The notes beneath the pieces were generated by a model. The model searched no databases and was not told where the DNA came from. It saw only the letters and a program-made list of their open reading frames with translations. A DNA stretch of 21,065 bases from an uncultured Alphaproteobacteria bacterium (GTDB lineage Bacteria > Pseudomonadota > Alphaproteobacteria > Puniceispirillales > Puniceispirillaceae), in assembly GCA_913042065.1 (NCBI GenBank), contig CAJWKB010000011.1, forward strand, positions 1 to 21,065. Reading direction: 5' to 3'. A program made the translations under genes and the position numbers. Positions 10,719 to 21,065 of the stretch are shown here, piece by piece (positions within the stretch are counted from its first letter, which is position 1; each line of letters begins with the position of its first letter).

Positions 10719-11504
10719 TCAGACCCCGGCCATGAAGCTGGCCGCCTCGCGCACCCGCGCTGCATTGTCGCTGGCAATGCTGCCATCTGCCATATAGACC
10801 GAATTTTCAAAGCCGACGCGCACCTTGCCGCCCGCGGCGATCGCTGCCTTCAGACACGCGGCCTCTTCGGTTGCAAAGGCGCAGATGGCCCAGTCGCTGT
10901 CGATGCCGGCCTGTTTCAATTCTGCCAGAAAGGGAGGCAATAACCCGGGGTAGCTGATCCGCCCGGTGTAGTGGCCGATGACAAACAGACACCAGATGCC
11001 CTGTCTTTCGAGTTCTGTCACATCCAGCAATTTTGCCAGCAAAGCAACATCCTCTGGGCCGTAGCATATATGTTGAAGCTGGATTCCGGCTTCCAATGTC
11101 CAGTTGTAGAACGCAATATCTTCTGGCTTTGGCACGCCATTCGGGATCATTTCCCGAACGCCAACGGATGCTCCCTGCGGGACCACCGCCCGGACAATGT
11201 CGCGCATGTCACCTGGACGATATTTGCCGACAGTTTCCGTCGTCATCTGCAGATGCATGTCTGGCACGGCGCGCTGCAGTTCGGCAATCGCTTCATGATA
11301 CAGCCCCGCATCAAGAATGTGACCACCATCAGTGTCACGGACATGATAATGGATAGCGCCGGCTCCGGCATCGGCGCAGTCACGCGCAACAGCGGCGATC
11401 TCGCCGGCATCAAGCGGCACCTGTGGGTGGTCGGCCTTTACTTTGCGGGCGCCATTGGGGGCAACCATGATCGGTGGTAGGGTTAATGATGGGGTGCTGG
11501 GCAT
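10719..11504 (-). CDS. Beta-keto acid cleavage enzyme family (BKACE, DUF849)
   Basis: Members of this Zn-dependent TIM-barrel family condense a beta-keto acid with acetyl-CoA and split it into a CoA thioester and acetoacetate. The founding member is Kce of lysine fermentation; others act on 3-dehydrocarnitine or beta-ketoadipate. Over 261 residues, PIMVAPNGARK (11-21) opens the barrel. The Zn ligands His52 and His54 are in IHYHVRD, TTET is at 88-91, and the third ligand Glu233 is in VGFENSVYM. The ATG lies nine bases after the stop of the GcvT/DmdA-like gene, so the two form one transcript. No specificity residue could be judged, so the keto acid is unknown. It is slightly shorter than the usual 275-310 residues. 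Confidence 0.85.
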   Translation of the reverse strand: MPSTPSLTLPPIMVAPNGARKVKADHPQVPLDAGEIAAVARDCADAGAGAIHYHVRDTDGGHILDAGLYHEAIAELQRAVPDMHLQMTTETVGKYRPGDMRDIVRAVVPQGASVGVREMIPNGVPKPEDIAFYNWTLEAGIQLQHICYGPEDVALLAKLLDVTELERQGIWCLFVIGHYTGRISYPGLLPPFLAELKQAGIDSDWAICAFATEEAACLKAAIAAGGKVRVGFENSVYMADGSIASDNAARVREAASFMAGV

Positions 11505-11513
11505 GATTTTGAT

Positions 11514-12692
11514 CTACCCGGCGGCAATGGATTTTTTGGGGTCATAGAACGGGATCGGAACAATGGTCGCCCGGTGCTGTTGTTCCTGACCGGACATAAT
11601 AACTTCAACCTCCTGGCCGATGTCGCTCATTCCGGTCTCGATCATGCAGAGCGCGATGTTCTTTTTGAGACGTGGTGAATGGATTGCCGATGTCACCTTG
11701 CCGACCTGCCGTCCATTGACGGACAATGGCCAAAATTCATTGTTTGGCGATGTCAGCGGCTCTCCCTCAATCACAATGCCGATCTGGATGCGGCCAATGC
11801 CCTCGGCCTTGATCTGGCGCAGCGCGGCCTTGGCAACGAAATCCGCGTCCATCTCGAGATCGACGAGCCGGTCAAGGCGCAGTTCGAACGGATTTGTCTC
11901 GATATCCATGTCGGCGTGATAGGACAGCATACCACCCTCGATCCTGCGGATTGATGAGGTGTGGCCTGGGCGCAGATCATAATCGGCCCCGGCTGTCATG
12001 ATGATTTCCCACAGTTCCGTGCCGCGTGATCCGTCGCGCAAAAAGATCTCATAGCCAAGTTCGCTGGACCAGCCCGTGCGTGACACCACGAGGGGGATGC
12101 CATCCAACTCAGTTTCGGCAAACCAGTAATATTTCAATTCAGCGATGGCATCACCGAATACCCGGCGGATGATTTCACGTGAATTCGGCCCCTGAAGCTG
12201 CAGGGGCGAGACATCAGGTTCACGGATTTTCACATCCATTCCGGCATTGGCGGCAAGCCCCCTTGCCCAGAGCAGGACGTCGCTGTCACCGATGGAAATC
12301 CAGAAATGATCGTCAGCCAGTTTCAGCAAAACCGGATCATTGATGATGCCGCCATGCTGATCGGTGATCAGGATATATTTGGCCTGACCAACGGCCATGT
12401 TCGTCAGATTGCGCGGCGTCATATATTGAACGAAACGCGCAGCATCAGGGCCGGTGACTTCAACCTGCCGCTCAACCGCGACATCGCACAGGATGGCGGT
12501 CCTTGTCAGGTTCCAGAAATTTTCCACCGGGTCGCCAAAATCGCGCGGGATATACATGTGGTTATAAACTGAATAGCCCGCAGCGCCCCATTTCTCAGTT
12601 GCCGCGAAGAAGGGTGACCGGCGGATCTGGGTGCCGAATCCTGCGGATGCGATCTTGGAAGTCGGCTTTGGTGAGGCTGGTACTGAGTTCAT
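11514..12692 (-). CDS. GcvT-family aminomethyltransferase, DmdA-like
   Basis: Tetrahydrofolate-dependent methyl or aminomethyl transferase, 392 residues. The opening RRSPFF...GYSVYNHMYIP, the central VAVERQVEVTGPDAARFVQ, INDPVLLKL, SIGDSDVLLWARGL, LQLQGPNSRE and VSRTGWSSELGYEIFL, and the C-terminal VTSAIHSPRLKKNIAL follow the DmdA (dimethylsulfoniopropionate demethylase) branch more closely than true glycine cleavage T protein. Authentic DmdA usually reads GWSKQGGYE where this protein has GWSSELGYE, so a different methylated substrate is likely. It is first in a two-gene transcript with the BKACE gene. No gcvH or gcvP is nearby, which argues against glycine cleavage. No clear Shine-Dalgarno precedes the ATG at 12692, so the first 20 residues are uncertain. 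Confidence 0.8.
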   Translation of the reverse strand: MNSVPASPKPTSKIASAGFGTQIRRSPFFAATEKWGAAGYSVYNHMYIPRDFGDPVENFWNLTRTAILCDVAVERQVEVTGPDAARFVQYMTPRNLTNMAVGQAKYILITDQHGGIINDPVLLKLADDHFWISIGDSDVLLWARGLAANAGMDVKIREPDVSPLQLQGPNSREIIRRVFGDAIAELKYYWFAETELDGIPLVVSRTGWSSELGYEIFLRDGSRGTELWEIIMTAGADYDLRPGHTSSIRRIEGGMLSYHADMDIETNPFELRLDRLVDLEMDADFVAKAALRQIKAEGIGRIQIGIVIEGEPLTSPNNEFWPLSVNGRQVGKVTSAIHSPRLKKNIALCMIETGMSDIGQEVEVIMSGQEQQHRATIVPIPFYDPKKSIAAG

Positions 12693-14093: not shown

Positions 14094-14930
14094 TTATTCA
14101 AGACCATTCAGAAACGTCGTGATATCATCGGCGTAGGCGTTTGTGCTGTCGCGGACGACCATGAAACAGGGCCGCTGGAAATCGGGTACGCCGTCAAGGG
14201 CAAACAGGCTCCTTCTGTCAATTTCCGGTGCAACGAGGCGGTGCGGCAGATAGGCTGATCCTCTATGCTGGCGCAGATGGGCAAGCGCCCAGCTGGCATT
14301 GTTGAAGCTGATCTTCGCGGTGTCGGCATCTGCATAGGCGGCGGTATGCTCGCGTTCAAAATCCGGACCGGCCTCGACATAGATGTAACCGGGATCATGC
14401 CGGGTCGGGCGGTTGGGCTCGGTGCCGACTAGACACAGCCGGTCAGCGCTGAGGGTGTGGAGCATCTGGCCAGCCTGCCCCGGCGGAGGGGCAAAGGTGA
14501 AGGCAACATCAACAAGCCCGTTGGCCAGCCATTGGGTGATGCGGCCGTCATCGCCCTGCCAGACGGACAGGGCAATCGAGGGGCGGGTCCGGCGCAATGA
14601 CTCGAAGAAAAGGGTTCCATACCCCGCCCATAAATCTGCATGTACGCCGATATTGCAGATGGCGTCGATTCCAGGTGGCAGCGACGTTTCCTGTTTTGCC
14701 TGGAGCCAGAGTTGAGTCATTGCCTCGGCATAGCGCCGGAGCTTGATTCCAGCGGCGGTGAGGGTCGCGCCATTTTTCTGCCGCAGGACGAGTGTCTGGC
14801 CAAGCTCGGCCTCAAGGGTCTGCAGGCGTGATGTCACGGTTGACTGGGTCACATTCATCGCGGTTGACGCCCGCACAAGAGACCCGGTTTTGACGATCGC
14901 AAGGAAGGTCTGCAGGGCAACCAGATTCAT
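14094..14930 (-). CDS. LysR-family transcriptional regulator
   Basis: A 278-residue regulator. The N-terminal winged helix-turn-helix is clear (LVALQTFLAIVKTGSLVRAS, then VTQSTVTSRLQTLEAELG at about 28-45, then LVLRQKNGATLTAAG), followed by a periplasmic-binding-protein-like effector domain from about 88 (ICNIGVHADLWAGYG...). It is divergent from the aldehyde dehydrogenase operon across about 118 bases that contain two palindromes, the classic LysR arrangement. It probably activates that operon in response to the substrate or an intermediate and represses itself. The ATG at 14930 is preferred to a GTG at 14936, since AGGA is nine bases upstream. Confidence 0.93.
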   Translation of the reverse strand: MNLVALQTFLAIVKTGSLVRASTAMNVTQSTVTSRLQTLEAELGQTLVLRQKNGATLTAAGIKLRRYAEAMTQLWLQAKQETSLPPGIDAICNIGVHADLWAGYGTLFFESLRRTRPSIALSVWQGDDGRITQWLANGLVDVAFTFAPPPGQAGQMLHTLSADRLCLVGTEPNRPTRHDPGYIYVEAGPDFEREHTAAYADADTAKISFNNASWALAHLRQHRGSAYLPHRLVAPEIDRRSLFALDGVPDFQRPCFMVVRDSTNAYADDITTFLNGLE

Positions 14931-14954
14931 CCACACTCATCCTTTCGCCAAAGT

Positions 14955-14966
14955 AAATTCGAATTT
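14955..14966. promoter_or_regulatory. Perfect 12-base palindrome, candidate LysR operator
   Basis: AAATTCGAATTT is a perfect dyad 25 bases upstream of the LysR start and about 85 bases upstream of the aldehyde dehydrogenase start. That is the position expected for a LysR recognition or autoregulation site. It is not a textbook T-N11-A box. Confidence 0.4.
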
Positions 14967-14983
14967 CCAGAATATTATATGAA

Positions 14984-14999
14984 GAAAATTTTGATTTTC
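14984..14999. promoter_or_regulatory. Inverted repeat GAAAAT-N4-ATTTTC, candidate operator
   Basis: Two perfect six-base arms surround TTTG, about 50 bases upstream of the aldehyde dehydrogenase ATG at 15049. Together with the palindrome at 14955 it could be the activation half of a two-site LysR control region, near the -35/-10 area of the operon promoter. Confidence 0.4.
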
Positions 15000-15048
15000 A
15001 AATATGAAATCTACTGTAATCTCAAATCAATCGTCTGGGGAGACAAGC

Positions 15049-16569
15049 ATGACAGACAGTAATGCCAAGGGCATTTCAACGGTCGATGCCGCCGGCATCA
15101 GGACTTATTCAATGCTGATCAATGGCCAATGGTCGCGGGCGGCGGACGGCGGGTTGTTCGACAGTGTCAATCCGGCGACGGGTGCGGTGTGGTCCCGAGT
15201 TCCCGAAGCGACGGCTGAGGATGTTGACGGCGCTGTCAGGGCGGCACATGCCGCGCTTTACAACGGTCCATGGGGCAGGATGACTGCCACTGAGCGCGGC
15301 CATTGTCTGCGCAGATTGGGAGATTTGCTTGCCGCACATTCCCAGACGCTTGGTGAGGTGGAAACCACCGATACGGGTAAGATGCTCAAAGAAACGCGGT
15401 GGCAGGCAAAATACATTGCTGAATATCTGTATTTCTATGCCGGTGCCGCCGACAAGGTTTCCGGTGAAACGCTGCCAATCGACAAGCCGGATATGTTTGT
15501 CTTTACTGACAGGGAGCCGCTGGGCGTGATTGCAGGGATCGTGCCATGGAATTCCCAGCTGTTTTTGAGCGCTGTCAAGATCGGGCCGGCGCTCGCTGCT
15601 GGCAACACAATTGTATTGAAAGCCTCGGAACATGCCTCGGCGGCCATGCTCGAATTTGGAGGATTGATTGCCGAGGCTGGCATTCCAGACGGTGTGGTCA
15701 ATATCGTCACCGGCCATGGTGACCCATGTGGCAGGGTGCTGACCTCACACCCCCTCGTCGCCCGCATTTCCTTTACCGGCGGCCCTGTTTCGGCGCAGCA
15801 TGTAATCCAGAATTCGGCGCAGAATTTTGCCGAGGTGTCGCTTGAACTGGGTGGAAAATCGCCTTTCATCGTGTTTGAGGATGCGGATATCGAGAGTGCG
15901 GTCAACGGGTCCATCGGTGGTATCTTCGCCGCCTCCGGGCAGAGCTGCGTTGCGGGGTCGCGGGTCTATCTGCAGGAGGCTGTCGCAGATGAGTTCCTGC
16001 AGCGGATGATTGAAATTGTCAGCAAAATCCGGATCGGTGATCCGCTCACCGAGGCGACCGAAATGGGGCCGCTCTGCACGCCAGCCCAGCTTGCCACGGT
16101 TGAGAGCGAGGTTGCGCATGCGGTTAGCGAGGGTGGTAGGCTGCTGTGCGGTGGCAATCGTGTTGCCGGGTTGGACGGCTATTTCTTCGAGCCAACCATC
16201 ATCGAATGTCCAAGCCAGTCGCTGCGGATCGTCGATACCGAGCTGTTTGGCCCGGTGCTGTCGGTGATCAGGTTTAAGACCGAGGAAGACGTGATTGCGC
16301 TGGCAAATGACACCAGACATGGGTTGGCCGCCGGCATTTTCACCCGTGACTCTGCCCGTTCGCTGCGCGTTGCCAAAGCGGTGCGGGCCGGTATTGTTTG
16401 GGTGAATACCTATCGCGCCATTTCTCCCATCGCAGAATTTGGTGGCACCAAGACATCGGGCTATGGGCGTGAAAGCGGCTTTCAGGCAATCTATGATTAC
16501 ACGCGGCCAAAGACCGTGTGGATGAATACATCCAGCACACCGTTGGCGAGCCAGTTTGCACCACGCTGA
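15049..16569 (+). CDS. NAD(P)-dependent aldehyde dehydrogenase
   Basis: Oxidises an aldehyde to the carboxylic acid. Numbered from ATG 15049 (506 residues, normal length), the family residues are all present: Asn168 in IVPWNSQL, Lys191 and Glu194 in VLKASEHAS at the cofactor site, FTGG (242-245), the general base Glu266 in LELGGKSP, and nucleophile Cys300 in ASGQSCVAGSR. The late motif ELFGPVLSV is also present. An in-frame ATG at 15004 exists, but ATG 15049 has GGGGAGA about seven bases upstream and the earlier one has none. It is the first gene of the LysR-controlled operon; the flavin monooxygenase gene follows after 19 bases. It resembles betaine- and hydroxymuconic-semialdehyde-type dehydrogenases, but the substrate cannot be assigned. 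Confidence 0.93.
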   Translation: MTDSNAKGISTVDAAGIRTYSMLINGQWSRAADGGLFDSVNPATGAVWSRVPEATAEDVDGAVRAAHAALYNGPWGRMTATERGHCLRRLGDLLAAHSQTLGEVETTDTGKMLKETRWQAKYIAEYLYFYAGAADKVSGETLPIDKPDMFVFTDREPLGVIAGIVPWNSQLFLSAVKIGPALAAGNTIVLKASEHASAAMLEFGGLIAEAGIPDGVVNIVTGHGDPCGRVLTSHPLVARISFTGGPVSAQHVIQNSAQNFAEVSLELGGKSPFIVFEDADIESAVNGSIGGIFAASGQSCVAGSRVYLQEAVADEFLQRMIEIVSKIRIGDPLTEATEMGPLCTPAQLATVESEVAHAVSEGGRLLCGGNRVAGLDGYFFEPTIIECPSQSLRIVDTELFGPVLSVIRFKTEEDVIALANDTRHGLAAGIFTRDSARSLRVAKAVRAGIVWVNTYRAISPIAEFGGTKTSGYGRESGFQAIYDYTRPKTVWMNTSSTPLASQFAPR

Positions 16570-16588
16570 CAGTAAGGGAGGGCAGATC

Positions 16589-17623
16589 ATGAAATTTCAC
16601 CTTGCGGTCAATCTGGAGAGGATAAATGACGCCACCGACATGATGGCGGTGCAAAAACATACGCTGGAAATGGTGCAGATGGCTGATCGCGCGGGGTTTG
16701 AAATCGCCTGGGCAGCTGAACATCATGCGTTGGAAATGACGATTGCTCCAAACCCGTTTCAACTGCTCACCTGGTGGGCCGACCACACTGACAGCATTCG
16801 TCTCGGATCTGGTGTTGCCAATGCTGCCTACTGGCATCCAATCAATATCGCGGGTGAGGCGGCGATGGTGGATTTGATCTCCGGCGGACGTCTTGAATTC
16901 GGTCTTGGCTCGGGTGCCTATCAGCGCGAATTTGACCGGATGCACCCCGGCCTCGACCAGAAGGACAGCTATCGCTACATGCAGGAGATGCTGCCGCTTG
17001 TGCGTCAGCTCTGGCAGGGTGATGTGGCGCATGAGGGCGAGTTCTGGCAGTTTCCAGCGGCAACATCCTGTCCGAAACCGGTGCAAGAGGAAGTGCCATT
17101 CTGGGTTGCGGCACGATCACCCATTACCTTTGACTATGCAGTCGCCAATAACTGCAACATCATGAGCTGGCCGCTGACGCTGCCGATGTCTGAGGCTGAG
17201 ACATACCGCCGAAATCTTGATGAGGCCATCGCCAAGGCAGACAATGGGTGGGCAGGAACCTTTGCCATGATGCGCCATACGGCTGTCTATGCAAATGCTG
17301 CCGACCGCAGCGCCGCGGTTGCTGCCATCCGCAATGTGCTGGCGCAATTTGGCAATCTGATGATGAAACGGGGCACGGTTGATAACGGATTTCCCGAACC
17401 GATCCCTTTTGCCGCGCTTGAGGGCAATGTCCGGGTTGATCCCGACATGCTGGAGGAAAATTTGATGTTTGGATCGCCCGAGCAGGTGATCGCCAAATTA
17501 CAGGATTATCAGAGGCTGGGGGTCGACGCCTTTATCTATTATGCGTCGATGGGCCTTGGGATGGATGAACAGAAACGCTCAATGGAGCTATTCTGCAGGG
17601 AAGTCATGCCTGCCTTTCAGTGA
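16589..17623 (+). CDS. LLM-class (luciferase-like) flavin-dependent monooxygenase
   Basis: A 344-residue TIM-barrel oxidoreductase using reduced FMN or F420. Family hallmarks are MADRAGFEIAWAAEHH (31-46), IRLGSGVANAAYWHP (70-84) and the AAMVDLISGGRLEFGLGSG block (91-109). Near the C-terminus are MFGSPEQVIAKL and LGVDAFIYY. Members oxidise sulfonates, long-chain alkanes, aldehydes or heterocycles, and some cleave C-S or C-N bonds. A partner flavin reductase is not in the window. The start at 16589 is preferred over an in-frame ATG at 16556 inside the previous gene, because GGGAGG lies seven bases before it. It sits between the aldehyde dehydrogenase and the hydrolase in one operon. Confidence 0.9.
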   Translation: MKFHLAVNLERINDATDMMAVQKHTLEMVQMADRAGFEIAWAAEHHALEMTIAPNPFQLLTWWADHTDSIRLGSGVANAAYWHPINIAGEAAMVDLISGGRLEFGLGSGAYQREFDRMHPGLDQKDSYRYMQEMLPLVRQLWQGDVAHEGEFWQFPAATSCPKPVQEEVPFWVAARSPITFDYAVANNCNIMSWPLTLPMSEAETYRRNLDEAIAKADNGWAGTFAMMRHTAVYANAADRSAAVAAIRNVLAQFGNLMMKRGTVDNGFPEPIPFAALEGNVRVDPDMLEENLMFGSPEQVIAKLQDYQRLGVDAFIYYASMGLGMDEQKRSMELFCREVMPAFQ

Positions 17624-17654
17624 GAAGGCGGGGATTTGAGGGGATGTCAGCTGA

Positions 17655-18566
17655 ATGGATGAGGCTGCGATGACAGGGCAAGGTGATGGCAAATGTGAGG
17701 GGACAGCCTATTCATGGCATCCTGCCCGTGACTGCGGTGCCGATGCCAGAGTGCCTGATGCCGGGGTGATTGTCCTTATCCATGGGCTTGGCCTAACGCG
17801 GGCCACATGGGCTGGGCAGATTGTAGCGTTGAGCCAGCATCACGATGTTCTTGCCTACGACCTTGCCGGACATGGCGAGTCTGATTTGCCATCTGGCACA
17901 CCGGGTTTGACTCTATATAGCGCCCAACTGCGCCACCTGCTTGACAGGCTGGGCATCGGAGAATGCCATCTGGTCGGCTTTTCACTTGGCGGCATGATCA
18001 ACCGCCGGTTTGCGATGGATCACCCGGACAGGGTTCTCTCATTAGTGATCCTGAACTCACCCCATGAACGATCGCCGGAGGCGCAGGCACTTGTTGAAAA
18101 ACGCGCCACGGACACAGAAGGAGGCGGCCCGGGGGCCACGATTGATGAGACGTTGGCGCGCTGGTTCACGCCAGCCTTCCTCACTGAACGCCCTGATGTA
18201 GTTGCAGTTATCCGCGATTGGGTTCTGGCGAATGATCCGCAAAGTTATGCCGCCTGTCGTGCTGTCCTCGCGCATGGCGTGCGTGAATTGATCAGACCAG
18301 AGCCGGCGATCACACATCCGGCTTTGGTTGTCACCTGCGAGAATGACAGCGGCAGCACGCCGGCAATGTCGCATGCCATTGCCAGTGAAATCATCGGGGC
18401 GCAGGTCGAGATCATTCCCCGGTTGCAGCATCTGGGCCTCGTTGAGAATCCTGACCTGTTCACAGCATCAATTCTACGGTTTATTGAGGGGCTATCCCCC
18501 GGCTGCCAACCCAACCATTCCCCGGCCAATGTCTCTAAGGAAAAATCTCATGAACAAGACTGTTAA
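17655..18566 (+). CDS. Alpha/beta hydrolase, PcaD-like
   Basis: A 303-residue alpha/beta hydrolase. The oxyanion loop is IHGLGLTRATW (42-52) and the nucleophile elbow is GFSLGG with Ser110. The catalytic acid is probably Asp231 in VTCENDSGSTP, and the catalytic His259 is in RLQHLGLVENP. The pattern is close to 3-oxoadipate enol-lactonase (PcaD) and related C-C or lactone hydrolases, but context does not fix the substrate. The ATG at 17670 (MTGQGDG) has a closer GAGG and may be the true start. The last 17 bases overlap the next gene, whose Shine-Dalgarno lies inside this one, so translation is probably coupled. It is the third gene of the operon, 31 bases after the LLM gene. Confidence 0.88.
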   Translation: MDEAAMTGQGDGKCEGTAYSWHPARDCGADARVPDAGVIVLIHGLGLTRATWAGQIVALSQHHDVLAYDLAGHGESDLPSGTPGLTLYSAQLRHLLDRLGIGECHLVGFSLGGMINRRFAMDHPDRVLSLVILNSPHERSPEAQALVEKRATDTEGGGPGATIDETLARWFTPAFLTERPDVVAVIRDWVLANDPQSYAACRAVLAHGVRELIRPEPAITHPALVVTCENDSGSTPAMSHAIASEIIGAQVEIIPRLQHLGLVENPDLFTASILRFIEGLSPGCQPNHSPANVSKEKSHEQDC

Positions 18567-20253
18567 CAAAATGATCTCAGGTGGGCAGGCAGCTGTAAGG
18601 GCGCTGCAGGTTGAAAAGACAGACCATGTGTTTGGCTTGATTGGCTCAGCCACGATGGAAATGTTTGATGCGCTTTATGATGCGGATGACATCAATTTCA
18701 TTGGTATCCATGATGAACGGACCGGAACGCATATGGCTGATGGATATGCGCGTGCCTCCGGCCGTGCGGGCGTTGTCCTTGCAGGCCAGAATGGTCCCGG
18801 GGCGACCAATCTCGTCACCGGTCTTGCCCAGGCGAAAGCAGCCTTCTCGCCGGTGATATCGATTGCTGGTGCGCTGTCGAGTGAGCATCAATATCGCGAT
18901 GCCTTTCAGGAAGTGGACCAACAGGCGCTGTTTACGCCGGTCACCAAGAAAACCTGGACAGCGCCAAGTGCAGAGCGTGTTCCCGAACTTTTCCGCGAGG
19001 CGTTCCGTCTTGCACTGACGCCTCGTATGGGACCGGTACAGCTGAATCTGCCGCGCGACGTGTTAGCGGCGCAGATCACCGCTCCAGATTTTCAAGAACC
19101 GCAACATTATAGGACAACTTCGCGGCCTGCAGGCGCTAACTCTGAAATTACTGCTGCGGCAGCTTTGCTGGGTGGTGCAGCGCGGCCAGTAATCGTTGTT
19201 GGGGGTGGTATAAAGAATACGGGTGGAGAGGATGCTGCGCTAGCGCTTGCCACAGCAATGAATGCCCCACTTGTTTCAGCGCCGGGTCATGGTGATGCGA
19301 TTTCCTTTGGCCATCCCCTGAATGCTGGCCAGATGGGCCCAAGGGGCAATGTGGTTGCATCACGACTAGTCCGTGAGGCTGACGTCATTCTCGCATTAGG
19401 AACGCGGCTTGGCTTCAATTCTACCTTCTATTCCTATGATAACATTAACCGTGATGCCAAAATCATCCAGATAGAGCTGGAGCCAACTGCCATTGGTCGC
19501 TTTTTTCCGATTGAGATTGGGATTTGGGCCGATGCTCCCACCGCAGCCCTGCAGCTGGCCGAGGCTGTTTCGTTGCAGCAGGCACGATCTGCCGTTGACG
19601 CCTGGACAGCGCAGTTTCAGGATGATCGCGCGGCCTACCGCGCCCAGCGTGATGCAGATGCGGTGCTTGATACGGCGCTGATCCAACCTTCCGGCCTGTT
19701 CAAGACATTGCGTGATGTGTTGCCTGCCGAGGCAGCATTCACCATGGATGCGGGGACTTTGTGTCTGCAGGCCACTGACGCGATGAACTACTGGCACCCA
19801 AAATCGCTGTTCACGCCATTGGATTTTGGCCTTGTCGGCTTTTCCTTCTCCTGTGGTCTTGGTGTAAAACTGGCAAATCCGGAACGGCCGGTCATTTCAA
19901 TGATGGGTGATGGCGGCTTCGGCATGACCATTTCCGAGCTCAGCACAGCTGTGGATCACGGTATCAACACAGTGACCATCGTGATGAACAATCAATGCTG
20001 GGGGGCAGAGAAAGCCTATCAGAGAGATTTCTTTAATGGACGCTACATTGGCGCAGATGTCTCTAGCCCGTCCTTTGACGAGGCTGCCGAGCTTTATGGC
20101 GCGGTAGGTTTCAAGGTTGATCATTTGGACCAGGTTGGCGACGCTGTTGGTGCGGCCCTTGCTGCCGCCCGCCCGGCGGTCATAGACATATCGGTGGATC
20201 CCGCCGCGCTCTACAGTTTCCGGAGAGACAGCTTCAAACATCGGGGGGGGTGA
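18550..20253 (+). CDS. Thiamine-diphosphate-dependent enzyme, Xsc/acetolactate synthase-like
   Basis: A 567-residue ThDP enzyme with the three standard domains: Pyr (1-175), central (195-345) and PP (about 375-567). The catalytic Glu56 is in IHDERTGTHMADGYAR. The FQEVDQQALF segment (119-128) and RDVL follow, and the ThDP/Mg motif is MMGDGGFGMT...NN (451-481). The segment NNQCWGAEKAYQRDFFNGRYIG and the ending FRRDSFK recall sulfoacetaldehyde acetyltransferase (Xsc), which makes acetyl phosphate and sulfite, more than acetolactate synthase. No pta gene or sulfite exporter adjoins it, so Xsc activity is not claimed. A longer in-frame ATG at 18328 lies inside the hydrolase gene and is rejected; ATG 18550 has AAGGA ten bases upstream. 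It is the last gene of the operon. Confidence 0.87.
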   Translation: MNKTVNKMISGGQAAVRALQVEKTDHVFGLIGSATMEMFDALYDADDINFIGIHDERTGTHMADGYARASGRAGVVLAGQNGPGATNLVTGLAQAKAAFSPVISIAGALSSEHQYRDAFQEVDQQALFTPVTKKTWTAPSAERVPELFREAFRLALTPRMGPVQLNLPRDVLAAQITAPDFQEPQHYRTTSRPAGANSEITAAAALLGGAARPVIVVGGGIKNTGGEDAALALATAMNAPLVSAPGHGDAISFGHPLNAGQMGPRGNVVASRLVREADVILALGTRLGFNSTFYSYDNINRDAKIIQIELEPTAIGRFFPIEIGIWADAPTAALQLAEAVSLQQARSAVDAWTAQFQDDRAAYRAQRDADAVLDTALIQPSGLFKTLRDVLPAEAAFTMDAGTLCLQATDAMNYWHPKSLFTPLDFGLVGFSFSCGLGVKLANPERPVISMMGDGGFGMTISELSTAVDHGINTVTIVMNNQCWGAEKAYQRDFFNGRYIGADVSSPSFDEAAELYGAVGFKVDHLDQVGDAVGAALAAARPAVIDISVDPAALYSFRRDSFKHRGG

Positions 20254-20255
20254 TG

Positions 20256-21065
20256 TTACAGTGATTTCATCAGGGCTTTGACATTGGACGAGAGTGGCAC
20301 CGCCTTGGTCTCGTTGAATTCTTCATGGTTCTTCTCCACCACATCCAGATCATAGCGATAGTTCACCATCAGCCCGCCGGCCTGTGCCACTGCTTTTGGT
20401 GAACGATCGCCTCCATAATTTAGCTGCTCCAAGAAGGCGCCATTGCCTAGGTGAAATCGCGCTACAGGGTCATTTGGCAACCCATCGCGCCGGTCAGACA
20501 CAGTCAGATATTCGAGGGCAGCGCGTGTGAATTCTGTTTGCAATTTCCCGGCTTCTTCTGACCAGAAGCCTTCGTCTATGTCGGTAAACTTTGAGGCCAG
20601 ACCGGGTTTGACCGTTTTCATCCATTTCATCAAGCCTAGGACAGGAGACAATGTGACAAAGCGCGACAGGTTTGGCAATTCCTGACGTAACTGGCTAGCA
20701 ACGCGCTTGATTAGAAAATTACCAAAAGAAATGCCAGCCAAACCACTTTGACAGTTTGAAATAGAATAGAACACAGCAGTAGTTGCCGCATTGGCGGCAT
20801 CAGCATCACGGTTCAACGCCAGAACATTGTCGATGCGTTGCGGGATGTCGGTCGTAAGGGCCACTTCGACGAAAATCAGCGGCTCATTGGGCATGGCAGG
20901 ATGAAAAAAAGCGAAACAGCGCCTGTCTTCTGGCGCGAGACGTGCTCTCAAATCCTCCCAAGACGTGATTTCATGGACCGCCTCGTAAGCAATTATTTTT
21001 TCGAGAATATTTGCTGGAGTTGACCAGTCTATCGGTTCCAAAACAAGAAAACCGGGGTTGAACCA
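20256..21065 (-). CDS. Malonyl-CoA decarboxylase, C-terminal part
   Basis: Converts malonyl-CoA to acetyl-CoA and CO2. The 269 residues visible are the catalytic acetyltransferase-like domain. WFNPGFLVLEPIDWSTPA begins at the right edge, then come CFAFFHPAMPNEPLIFVEVALT, FYSISNCQSGLAGISFGNFLIK with the catalytic Ser region, FVTLSPV, and ARFHLGNGAFLEQLNYGGD with the catalytic His. The frame is open to base 21065, and the apparent first Met (21041) is an internal TTG leucine, so the gene continues off the window. It converges on the ThDP gene with two bases between stops and no terminator hairpin. It may be a separate malonate-metabolism locus rather than part of the neighbouring operon. Confidence 0.93.
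   Translation of the reverse strand, partial: WFNPGFLVLEPIDWSTPANILEKIIAYEAVHEITSWEDLRARLAPEDRRCFAFFHPAMPNEPLIFVEVALTTDIPQRIDNVLALNRDADAANAATTAVFYSISNCQSGLAGISFGNFLIKRVASQLRQELPNLSRFVTLSPVLGLMKWMKTVKPGLASKFTDIDEGFWSEEAGKLQTEFTRAALEYLTVSDRRDGLPNDPVARFHLGNGAFLEQLNYGGDRSPKAVAQAGGLMVNYRYDLDVVEKNHEEFNETKAVPLSSNVKALMKSL

What the first reader, a model, noticed from the sequence alone, without database searches (positions are those of the whole stretch)
14094..20253. LysR-controlled four-gene oxidative operon of unknown substrate ending in an Xsc-like ThDP enzyme
Seen: LysR divergent from four closely spaced genes (19-base gap, 31-base gap, 17-base overlap) encoding aldehyde dehydrogenase, LLM flavin monooxygenase, PcaD-like hydrolase and a ThDP enzyme with Xsc-like C-terminal motifs. 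Known: LLM enzymes oxygenate sulfonates, aldehydes or heterocycles, and ThDP enzymes of this group cleave or join C-C (or C-S) bonds. Inference: the set forms a self-contained route in which monooxygenation, hydrolysis, aldehyde oxidation and ThDP cleavage happen in series. I know no characterised pathway with exactly this set, so the substrate may be new.
Basis: partly seen in the sequence, partly recalled or inferred. Interest (0 to 1): 0.72.

Follow-up and report, generated by a model that had tools for sequence, protein, structure and literature searches.

The report
Marine pyridine-ring catabolism operon, probably homarine
A conserved set of genes in ocean bacteria looks like a pathway for breaking open a methylated pyridine ring, most likely the algal metabolite homarine; the type of pathway is largely known, but what its thiamine-dependent enzyme does is not.

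Summary
The four genes and divergent LysR are real and at the stated coordinates. The window is SAR116-like (ThDP protein 94% identical to SAR116 MAG MED-G116). The set is a conserved operon in SAR116, Rhodobacteraceae and a few other MAGs and, with a different LLM and no LysR found, in SAR11. Most orthologous operons also carry a PF06684 gene (the TgnF family) and some a flavin reductase; both are missing from the window. LLM + ALDH + alpha/beta hydrolase + PF06684 is the kind of gene set used for trigonelline (N-methylnicotinate) ring cleavage (Tgn); a ThDP-free sister cluster lies on Sinorhizobium pSymA, the replicon needed for trigonelline growth. The ThDP protein falls in its own clade outside Xsc. 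Best reading: a Tgn-type operon opening an N-methylpyridinium betaine, most likely homarine, and probably the homarine operon published in 2026. That paper was not readable here, so identity rests on taxa, gene count (recalled) and chemistry. The open question is the ThDP step.

The parts
14094..14936 (-). LysR-type regulator, divergent from the operon
   Evidence: Pfam HTH_1 60 bits, LysR_substrate 36.7 bits; a LysR match in the same divergent place in 20 of 31 genome regions
14937..15048 (.). Intergenic control region with AAATTCGAATTT and TTTTGATTTTCAAAT elements (candidate LysR sites)
   Evidence: ATTCGA/TCGAAT in 16 of 27 orthologous regions (500 shuffles: mean 4.0, max 9); TT[CT][GA]NTTT[TC] in 19 of 27 (mean 3.8, max 9); patterns chosen after seeing 17 of the regions
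15049..16569 (+). Aldehyde dehydrogenase (TgnC-like role proposed); alternative start 15004
   Evidence: Pfam Aldedh 527 bits; 72-75% identical to one type A and two type B relatives
16589..17623 (+). LLM flavin monooxygenase (TgnA-like role proposed: ring opening); searches used 16592 onward, i.e. without the first Met
   Evidence: Pfam Bac_luciferase 188 bits; start and gap
17655..18566 (+). Alpha/beta hydrolase (TgnD-like role proposed)
   Evidence: Pfam Abhydrolase; PcaD and RutD models below cut-off
18550..20253 (+). ThDP-dependent enzyme, own clade outside Xsc
   Evidence: Pfam TPP_enzyme N/M/C; tree; alignment

Best explanation
The operon is a Tgn-type ring-opening pathway for a pyridinium betaine, most likely homarine (N-methylpicolinate) from phytoplankton. 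Proposed steps (inferred from families): LysR senses the substrate or a product; the LLM enzyme, with reduced flavin from a reductase encoded elsewhere, oxygenates the N-methylpyridinium ring and opens it to an N-formyl-N-methylamino aldehyde; the ALDH oxidises an aldehyde; the alpha/beta hydrolase removes the formyl group; the PF06684/TgnF-type protein (in most other operons, probably in trans here) helps handle the resulting enamine or imine; the ThDP enzyme completes conversion of an aldehyde or 2-oxo acid intermediate, taking the place of TgnE (succinate semialdehyde dehydrogenase). Shown: gene content, conserved linkage, separate ThDP clade, presence in SAR11, SAR116 and Rhodobacteraceae, betaine-type transporter genes beside a few copies. 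Inferred: substrate, order of steps, ThDP reaction. I put about 0.8 on ring opening of an N-heterocycle and about 0.55-0.6 on homarine.
For: A PF06684-family homologue lies in the operon in 23 of 31 genome regions (Pfam itself run on two copies), and PF06684 is the family of TgnF of the Acinetobacter trigonelline cluster (passage of PMC7913881). A ThDP-free sister cluster (GntR, PF06684, hydrolase, flavin reductase, LLM, ALDH, NIPSNAP, ABC transporter, SSADH) sits on S. meliloti ml45 pSymA beside nodL-noeAB, and S. meliloti without pSymA does not grow on trigonelline (passage of PMC4207669). A flavin-reductase-like gene lies between LysR and ALDH in 8 of 31 regions and in L004 (PF01613 confirmed in the 3 copies tested). 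ThDP profile hits: SAR116 family 14 of 61, SAR11 family 24 of 247, Rhodobacteraceae family 20 of 394 at 886 bits or more. Glycine-betaine-type ABC genes lie beside the ThDP operon in L008, L155, L156 and L163 (OpuAC domain in the L155 copy; ProX and choline-permease models below cut-off). Homarine was detected in Synechococcus (up to 18 mM), in four of six diatoms and in one Emiliania strain (corrected values, passages of PMC10134881). Mgd (N-methylglutamate dehydrogenase) is reported to take part in homarine catabolism (passage of PMC13390433), which fits the predicted N-methylamino C5 product. Recalled only: the homarine operon is homABCDER (five enzymes plus a regulator) in Rhodobacterales, SAR11 and SAR116.
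Against: The homarine paper was not held, so its gene list was not compared. Heal et al. judged TgnA/TgnB unlikely to act on homarine for steric reasons (PMC8269262); their companion statement that R. pomeroyi grew less well on homarine was withdrawn in the correction. The ThDP enzyme has no evident role in a trigonelline-type scheme. SAR11 copies use a different LLM (23% identical, L009). The window lacks PF06684 and flavin reductase. Neighbours of some copies suggest other chemistry (GbcA-like Rieske gene in L004 and L150; arginase-like pair and DDAH-like gene beside L155). Billgrantia (L015) and Rhodovulum (L024) carry the ThDP clade without an LLM operon and without PF06684 or a close LLM in the genome.
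Confidence: 0.6

Rival explanations
1. A Tgn-type operon for another N-heterocycle or quaternary ammonium compound (trigonelline itself, another N-methylpyridinium acid, or a related betaine), with the ThDP enzyme cleaving the resulting 2-oxo acid or aldehyde.
For: Same core gene set. A GbcA-like Rieske gene is inserted between ALDH and LLM in L004 and L150. Related cluster types B, C and D exist with LLM identities of 35-63% to the window, so substrates probably differ among types.
Against: For trigonelline itself, the better fit is the type D cluster, which has an SSADH beside it in S. meliloti and Rhizobium; in the marine Leisingera, Ruegeria and Marivivens copies no SSADH is annotated in the stretch shown, so this argument is weaker there. 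The SAR11/SAR116/Rhodobacterales spread fits the recalled homarine report.
Confidence: 0.25
2. A sulfonate or organosulfur route ending in an Xsc-type desulfonation.
For: The best NCBIfam models of the ThDP protein are Xsc (408 and 391 bits); QNGPG and WGAEKxxQ motifs are shared with Xsc rows.
Against: Far below both Xsc cut-offs; outside a 48-row clade of which the 5 members scanned all pass the Xsc cut-offs. Alkanesulfonate monooxygenase and SfnG models give the LLM 35 and 63 bits against cut-offs of 518 and 383.
Confidence: 0.05
3. Baeyer-Villiger-type route: the LLM turns a ketone into a lactone or ester, the PcaD-like hydrolase opens it, ALDH oxidises the product, and the ThDP enzyme joins or splits an acyloin.
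For: Some LLM enzymes are type II Baeyer-Villiger oxygenases (recalled). The hydrolase is closest to enol-lactonase models.
Against: 3,6-diketocamphane monooxygenase is not among the 33 solved sequences matched by the window LLM at E 0.001. It does not explain the PF06684 gene shared with trigonelline-type clusters.
Confidence: 0.07

Closest known systems
Trigonelline degradation genes tgnABCDEF (Acinetobacter baylyi ADP1; Perchat et al. 2018, recalled; TgnA/TgnB role and TgnF family from passages)
   Same: LLM oxygenase, ALDH and hydrolase here; PF06684 protein and, in some, flavin reductase in orthologous operons.
Homarine operon homABCDER (Ferrer-Gonzalez et al. 2026, Nat Microbiol 11:1531; only the reference entry and a citing sentence seen; the name and outline recalled)
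   Same: Full copies have five enzyme genes plus a LysR (ALDH, LLM, PF06684, hydrolase, ThDP); found in Rhodobacteraceae, SAR11 and SAR116 families.
   Different: Gene families of the published operon not read, so identity unproven; the window copy lacks PF06684; SAR11 copies here have another LLM and no LysR match.
Type D cluster of S. meliloti pSymA, Rhizobium, Leisingera (L179, L144, L142)
   Same: PF06684, hydrolase, flavin reductase, LLM, ALDH in one row.
   Different: No ThDP; GntR regulator; SSADH and ABC transporter beside it in L179 and L144; LLM 36-39% identical to the window (L144, L142).
Type B cluster of Parasedimentitalea and Aminobacter plasmids (L082, L083)
   Same: LLM 63% and ALDH 73-75% identical to the window; PF06684 and hydrolase nearby.
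   Different: No ThDP; RidA, enoyl-CoA hydratase-type, 3-hydroxyacyl-CoA dehydrogenase, BKACE-type and acyl-CoA dehydrogenase genes instead.
Sulfoacetaldehyde acetyltransferase Xsc
   Same: ThDP superfamily, QNGPG and WGAEKxxQ motifs.
   Different: About 33-37% identity, below family cut-offs, separate clade.
Pyrimidine Rut pathway (RutA LLM, RutC RidA, RutD hydrolase, RutF flavin reductase; recalled)
   Same: Logic of LLM ring opening followed by an alpha/beta hydrolase.
   Different: RutD model 74.5 bits against a cut-off of 238.5; no RutB or RutC seen in the operon.

Membership tests
Xsc (sulfoacetaldehyde acetyltransferase) | Score above TIGR03457 / PRK07525 cut-offs | tested here: not met
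   391 of 676 and 408 of 620 bits
Xsc (sulfoacetaldehyde acetyltransferase) | Falls inside the Xsc clade | tested here: not met
   40-row clade separate from a 48-row clade; 5 of the 48 checked by model, all above both cut-offs
Tgn-type ring-opening cluster | LLM, ALDH and alpha/beta hydrolase in one operon | tested here: met
Tgn-type ring-opening cluster | PF06684 (TgnF-family) gene | tested here: inconclusive
   No match in the window; homologue in 23 of 31 genome regions and 15 of 15 SAR11 loci; elsewhere in the genome in 7 of 8 relatives whose operon lacks it (not G034)
Tgn-type ring-opening cluster | Flavin reductase partner | tested here: inconclusive
   No match in the window; between LysR and ALDH in 8 of 31 regions, PF01613 in the 3 copies tested
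Tgn-type ring-opening cluster | SSADH (TgnE) in the cluster | tested here: not met
   ThDP gene instead; only one ALDH match in the window
Tgn-type ring-opening cluster | Direct sequence kinship to TgnA, C, D | not tested
   A. baylyi tgn sequences were not found in a named collection that I could search
hom operon (homarine) | Five enzymes plus regulator | tested here: inconclusive
   Full copies match the recalled count; the window has four enzymes plus LysR; published gene families not read
hom operon (homarine) | Present in Rhodobacterales, SAR11, SAR116 | tested here: met
   ThDP profile in 20 of 394, 24 of 247, 14 of 61 genomes; the expectation itself is recalled
hom operon (homarine) | Needed for growth on homarine | not testable with these tools
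   Needs mutants
3-oxoadipate enol-lactonase PcaD | TIGR02427 cut-off | tested here: not met
   164 of 256 bits

The most novel reading that the evidence does not exclude
The ThDP enzyme catalyses an internal redox (umpolung) of the ring-opening enal: OHC-CH=CH-CH(N)-COO- becomes acyl-ThDP by vinylogous protonation and is hydrolysed to N-formyl-N-methylglutamate, which the hydrolase deformylates to N-methylglutamate without outside reductant or oxidant. This would explain why N-methylglutamate dehydrogenase takes part in homarine use, and would be a catabolic homoenolate-type ThDP reaction.
Probability: 0.1. Interest if true: 0.75.

Novelty: new member of a known kind. Interest (0 to 1): 0.42.

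Why it matters
It ties a poorly annotated operon of abundant ocean bacteria (ThDP profile in 14 of 61 SAR116-family, 24 of 247 SAR11-family and 20 of 394 Rhodobacteraceae-family genomes) to consumption of phytoplankton pyridine betaines, gives a marker protein (the ThDP clade), and leaves one clear enzymological question, the ThDP step.

Tried and rejected
Sulfonate/Xsc route: rejected on cut-offs and tree. Acetolactate synthase, glyoxylate carboligase, cyclohexane-1,2-dione hydrolase: models or PDB matches score lower than, or as poorly as, the rest. The R. pomeroyi megaplasmid ThDP protein (44.8%) belongs to a sister clade in a different cluster. Co-occurrence with N-methylglutamate dehydrogenase was considered but not tested (no specific query at hand). 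No structure prediction was run. A statement that R. pomeroyi grows less well on homarine than on trigonelline (PMC8269262) was dropped as evidence because the authors' correction deletes it.
Full report
What is there. The window carries LysR (14094-14936, -), divergent from ALDH (15049-16569), LLM monooxygenase (16589-17623), alpha/beta hydrolase (17655-18566) and a ThDP enzyme (18550-20253), with gaps of 19 and 31 bases and a 17-base overlap. Pfam confirms each family. Among the best 25 NCBIfam models shown for each of these five proteins none reaches its cut-off, so none is a textbook member of a named family.

Where it comes from. The best genome match is SAR116 MAG MED-G116 (L001), with ThDP 94%, LLM 92%, ALDH 91%, LysR 89% and hydrolase 81% identical and the same flanking genes on both sides.

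Conservation. Of the 26 loci with ThDP identity of 59-94% (L001-L025, L037), 23 have a hydrolase homologue within about 1.5 kb of the ThDP gene; L002, L015 and L024 do not. All 15 SAR11 loci share the order LLM'-ThDP-PF06684 homologue-hydrolase, followed by ALDH in 13 (in the other two the contig ends), and none gave a LysR match. In 31 regions cut from Rhodobacteraceae- and SAR116-family genomes (L146-L176; L164 and L176 repeat loci) a hydrolase is next to ThDP in 30, LLM in 23, PF06684 homologue in 23, ALDH in 22, divergent LysR in 20, and a flavin-reductase-like gene before ALDH in 8; some misses are contig ends. PF01613 was confirmed in the three reductase copies tested, two of these eight and L004. 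A profile of the ThDP clade hits 14 of 61 SAR116-family genomes (one partial), 29 of 394 Rhodobacteraceae-family genomes (20 at 886 bits or more, one of them the Rhodovulum without LLM operon; 9 at 578-605 bits belong to a sister clade) and 24 of 247 SAR11-family genomes (one truncated with stops; neighbours not checked for these).

What the window lacks. No PF06684 or flavin reductase match was found in the window. Of 8 genomes whose operon lacks PF06684 (G001, G023, G024, G026, G034, G040, G181, G450), 7 have a copy elsewhere; G034 has none. Of 4 whose operon lacks LLM (G034, G036, G040, G450), 3 have an LLM 65-66% identical elsewhere; G040 has none. In G001 the spare PF06684 copy lies in a type B-like cluster with hydrolase, RidA and ALDH (L177). 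The system looks modular rather than self-contained. G008 (Billgrantia) and G009 (Rhodovulum), with the ThDP clade but no LLM operon, have neither PF06684 nor a close LLM.

What kind of pathway. LLM + ALDH + hydrolase + PF06684 recurs in other cluster types. A: with ThDP (this one). B: Parasedimentitalea and Aminobacter plasmids, with RidA and CoA-pathway genes. C: Agrobacterium pAt and Thalassospira, with a carboxymuconolactone decarboxylase family gene. D: S. meliloti pSymA, Rhizobium, Leisingera, Ruegeria and Marivivens, with flavin reductase and GntR, and SSADH plus an ABC transporter annotated beside it in S. meliloti ml45 and Rhizobium N731 but not in the stretches shown of the other three. 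Identities to the window LLM: B 63%, C 45-46%, D 35-39%, SAR11 23%. The key link is a passage of PMC7913881: the PF06684 (DUF1185) family includes TgnF of the trigonelline pathway of A. baylyi, said there to stimulate TgnE. A passage of PMC8269262 states that TgnA/TgnB open the trigonelline ring. A passage of PMC4207669 says that only wild-type S. meliloti, not the strain without pSymA, grows on trigonelline; the type D cluster lies on pSymA beside nodL-noeAB in strain ml45, and strain 1021 has the LLM on pSymA too (no annotation held). pSymA is over 1.3 Mb, so this link is suggestive. TgnC, D and E roles are recalled from Perchat et al. 2018.

Which substrate. Homarine, the isomer of trigonelline, was detected in Synechococcus (up to 18 mM) and in four of six diatoms; these are the corrected values, 1/25 of those first published (passages of PMC10134881). 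R. pomeroyi draws it down quickly from diatom lysate (passages of PMC12817926). Mgd is reported to take part in homarine catabolism (passage of PMC13390433, citing Ferrer-Gonzalez et al. 2026). Opening homarine as TgnA opens trigonelline would give a 2-(N-methylformamido)-C5 aldehyde acid, leading to N-methylglutamate or 2-oxoglutarate (inference). I recall that the 2026 work names homABCDER in Rhodobacterales, SAR11 and SAR116; five enzymes plus a regulator equals a full type A operon. The paper is not held, and no title listed (40 of 78 listed; 15 of 54 listed) describes that operon. Against: the authors of PMC8269262 expected TgnA not to act on homarine for steric reasons. Glycine-betaine-type ABC genes beside L008, L155, L156 and L163 fit a quaternary ammonium substrate, though they flank only four of the loci examined. 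A GbcA-like Rieske gene inside L004 and L150, and arginase-like and DDAH-like genes beside L155, are unexplained.

The ThDP enzyme. In a 106-row quick tree it sits in a 40-row clade (support 99) with a 9-row sister clade (R. pomeroyi megaplasmid type), separate from a 48-row clade (support 100) of which the five members scanned all pass the Xsc cut-offs. It keeps the conserved Glu (E56; catalytic role recalled) and a GDG...NN stretch, and shares QNGPG and WGAEKxxQ with Xsc rows; its C-terminus YSFRRDSFKHR differs from theirs. In Billgrantia the clade member is followed by a GMC oxidoreductase gene, and the sister clade sits beside a class III aminotransferase; both could make aldehydes, so an aldehyde substrate is my guess.

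Control. In the first 70 bases downstream of LysR's start, ATTCGA/TCGAAT occurs in 16 of 27 regions (shuffles: mean 4.0, max 9 of 500) and TT[CT][GA]NTTT[TC] in 19 of 27 (mean 3.8, max 9); patterns were picked after viewing 17 of the regions and the rows are related, so this is supportive only.

Verdict. Most likely this is a SAR116 copy of a Tgn-type, probably homarine, operon; the ThDP step is the open point.

Noticed in passing
window 20256-21041 (-): Malonyl-CoA decarboxylase C-terminal domain gene (PF05292) convergent with the operon; probably cut by the window edge, since the ORF at this place in L001 is 435 aa. In the loci examined it adjoins the ThDP gene only in the close SAR116 relatives (L001, L165, L166).
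   Followed up: partly
window 11514-12692 (-): GcvT-fold protein scoring 374 bits with the DMSP demethylase model, cut-off 410, beside a BKACE gene (10719-11504): a near-DMSP-demethylase of unknown substrate.
   Followed up: no
L081:375-10671: R. pomeroyi megaplasmid cluster: LysR, trimethylamine methyltransferase family, class III aminotransferase, two FAD oxidoreductases and a sister-clade ThDP enzyme; looks like demethylation and transamination of a betaine to an aldehyde for the ThDP enzyme.
   Followed up: partly
L009:7778-8989 and other SAR11 loci: SAR11 copies use a different LLM (403 aa, 23% identical) with the same ThDP, PF06684, hydrolase and ALDH partners.
   Followed up: partly
L155:4268-13954; L156:11990-13955 (operon orientation): Two adjacent arginase-family genes after the operon (family checked in L155) and, in L155, a DDAH/arginine-deiminase-like gene before it.
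   Followed up: no
L165:7433-7850: In relative G024 the ALDH reading frame between LysR and LLM appears internally deleted (only start and end of the gene left); may be real or an assembly fault.
   Followed up: no
L126 (G256): ThDP gene with one in-frame TAG in an otherwise intact-looking operon.
   Followed up: no
L003:10696-11019, L037:10681-11004 and others: Conserved small protein of about 107-111 aa just after ThDP, with no Pfam match for the L003 copy; other loci have a small carboxymuconolactone decarboxylase family gene there instead (L155).
   Followed up: no
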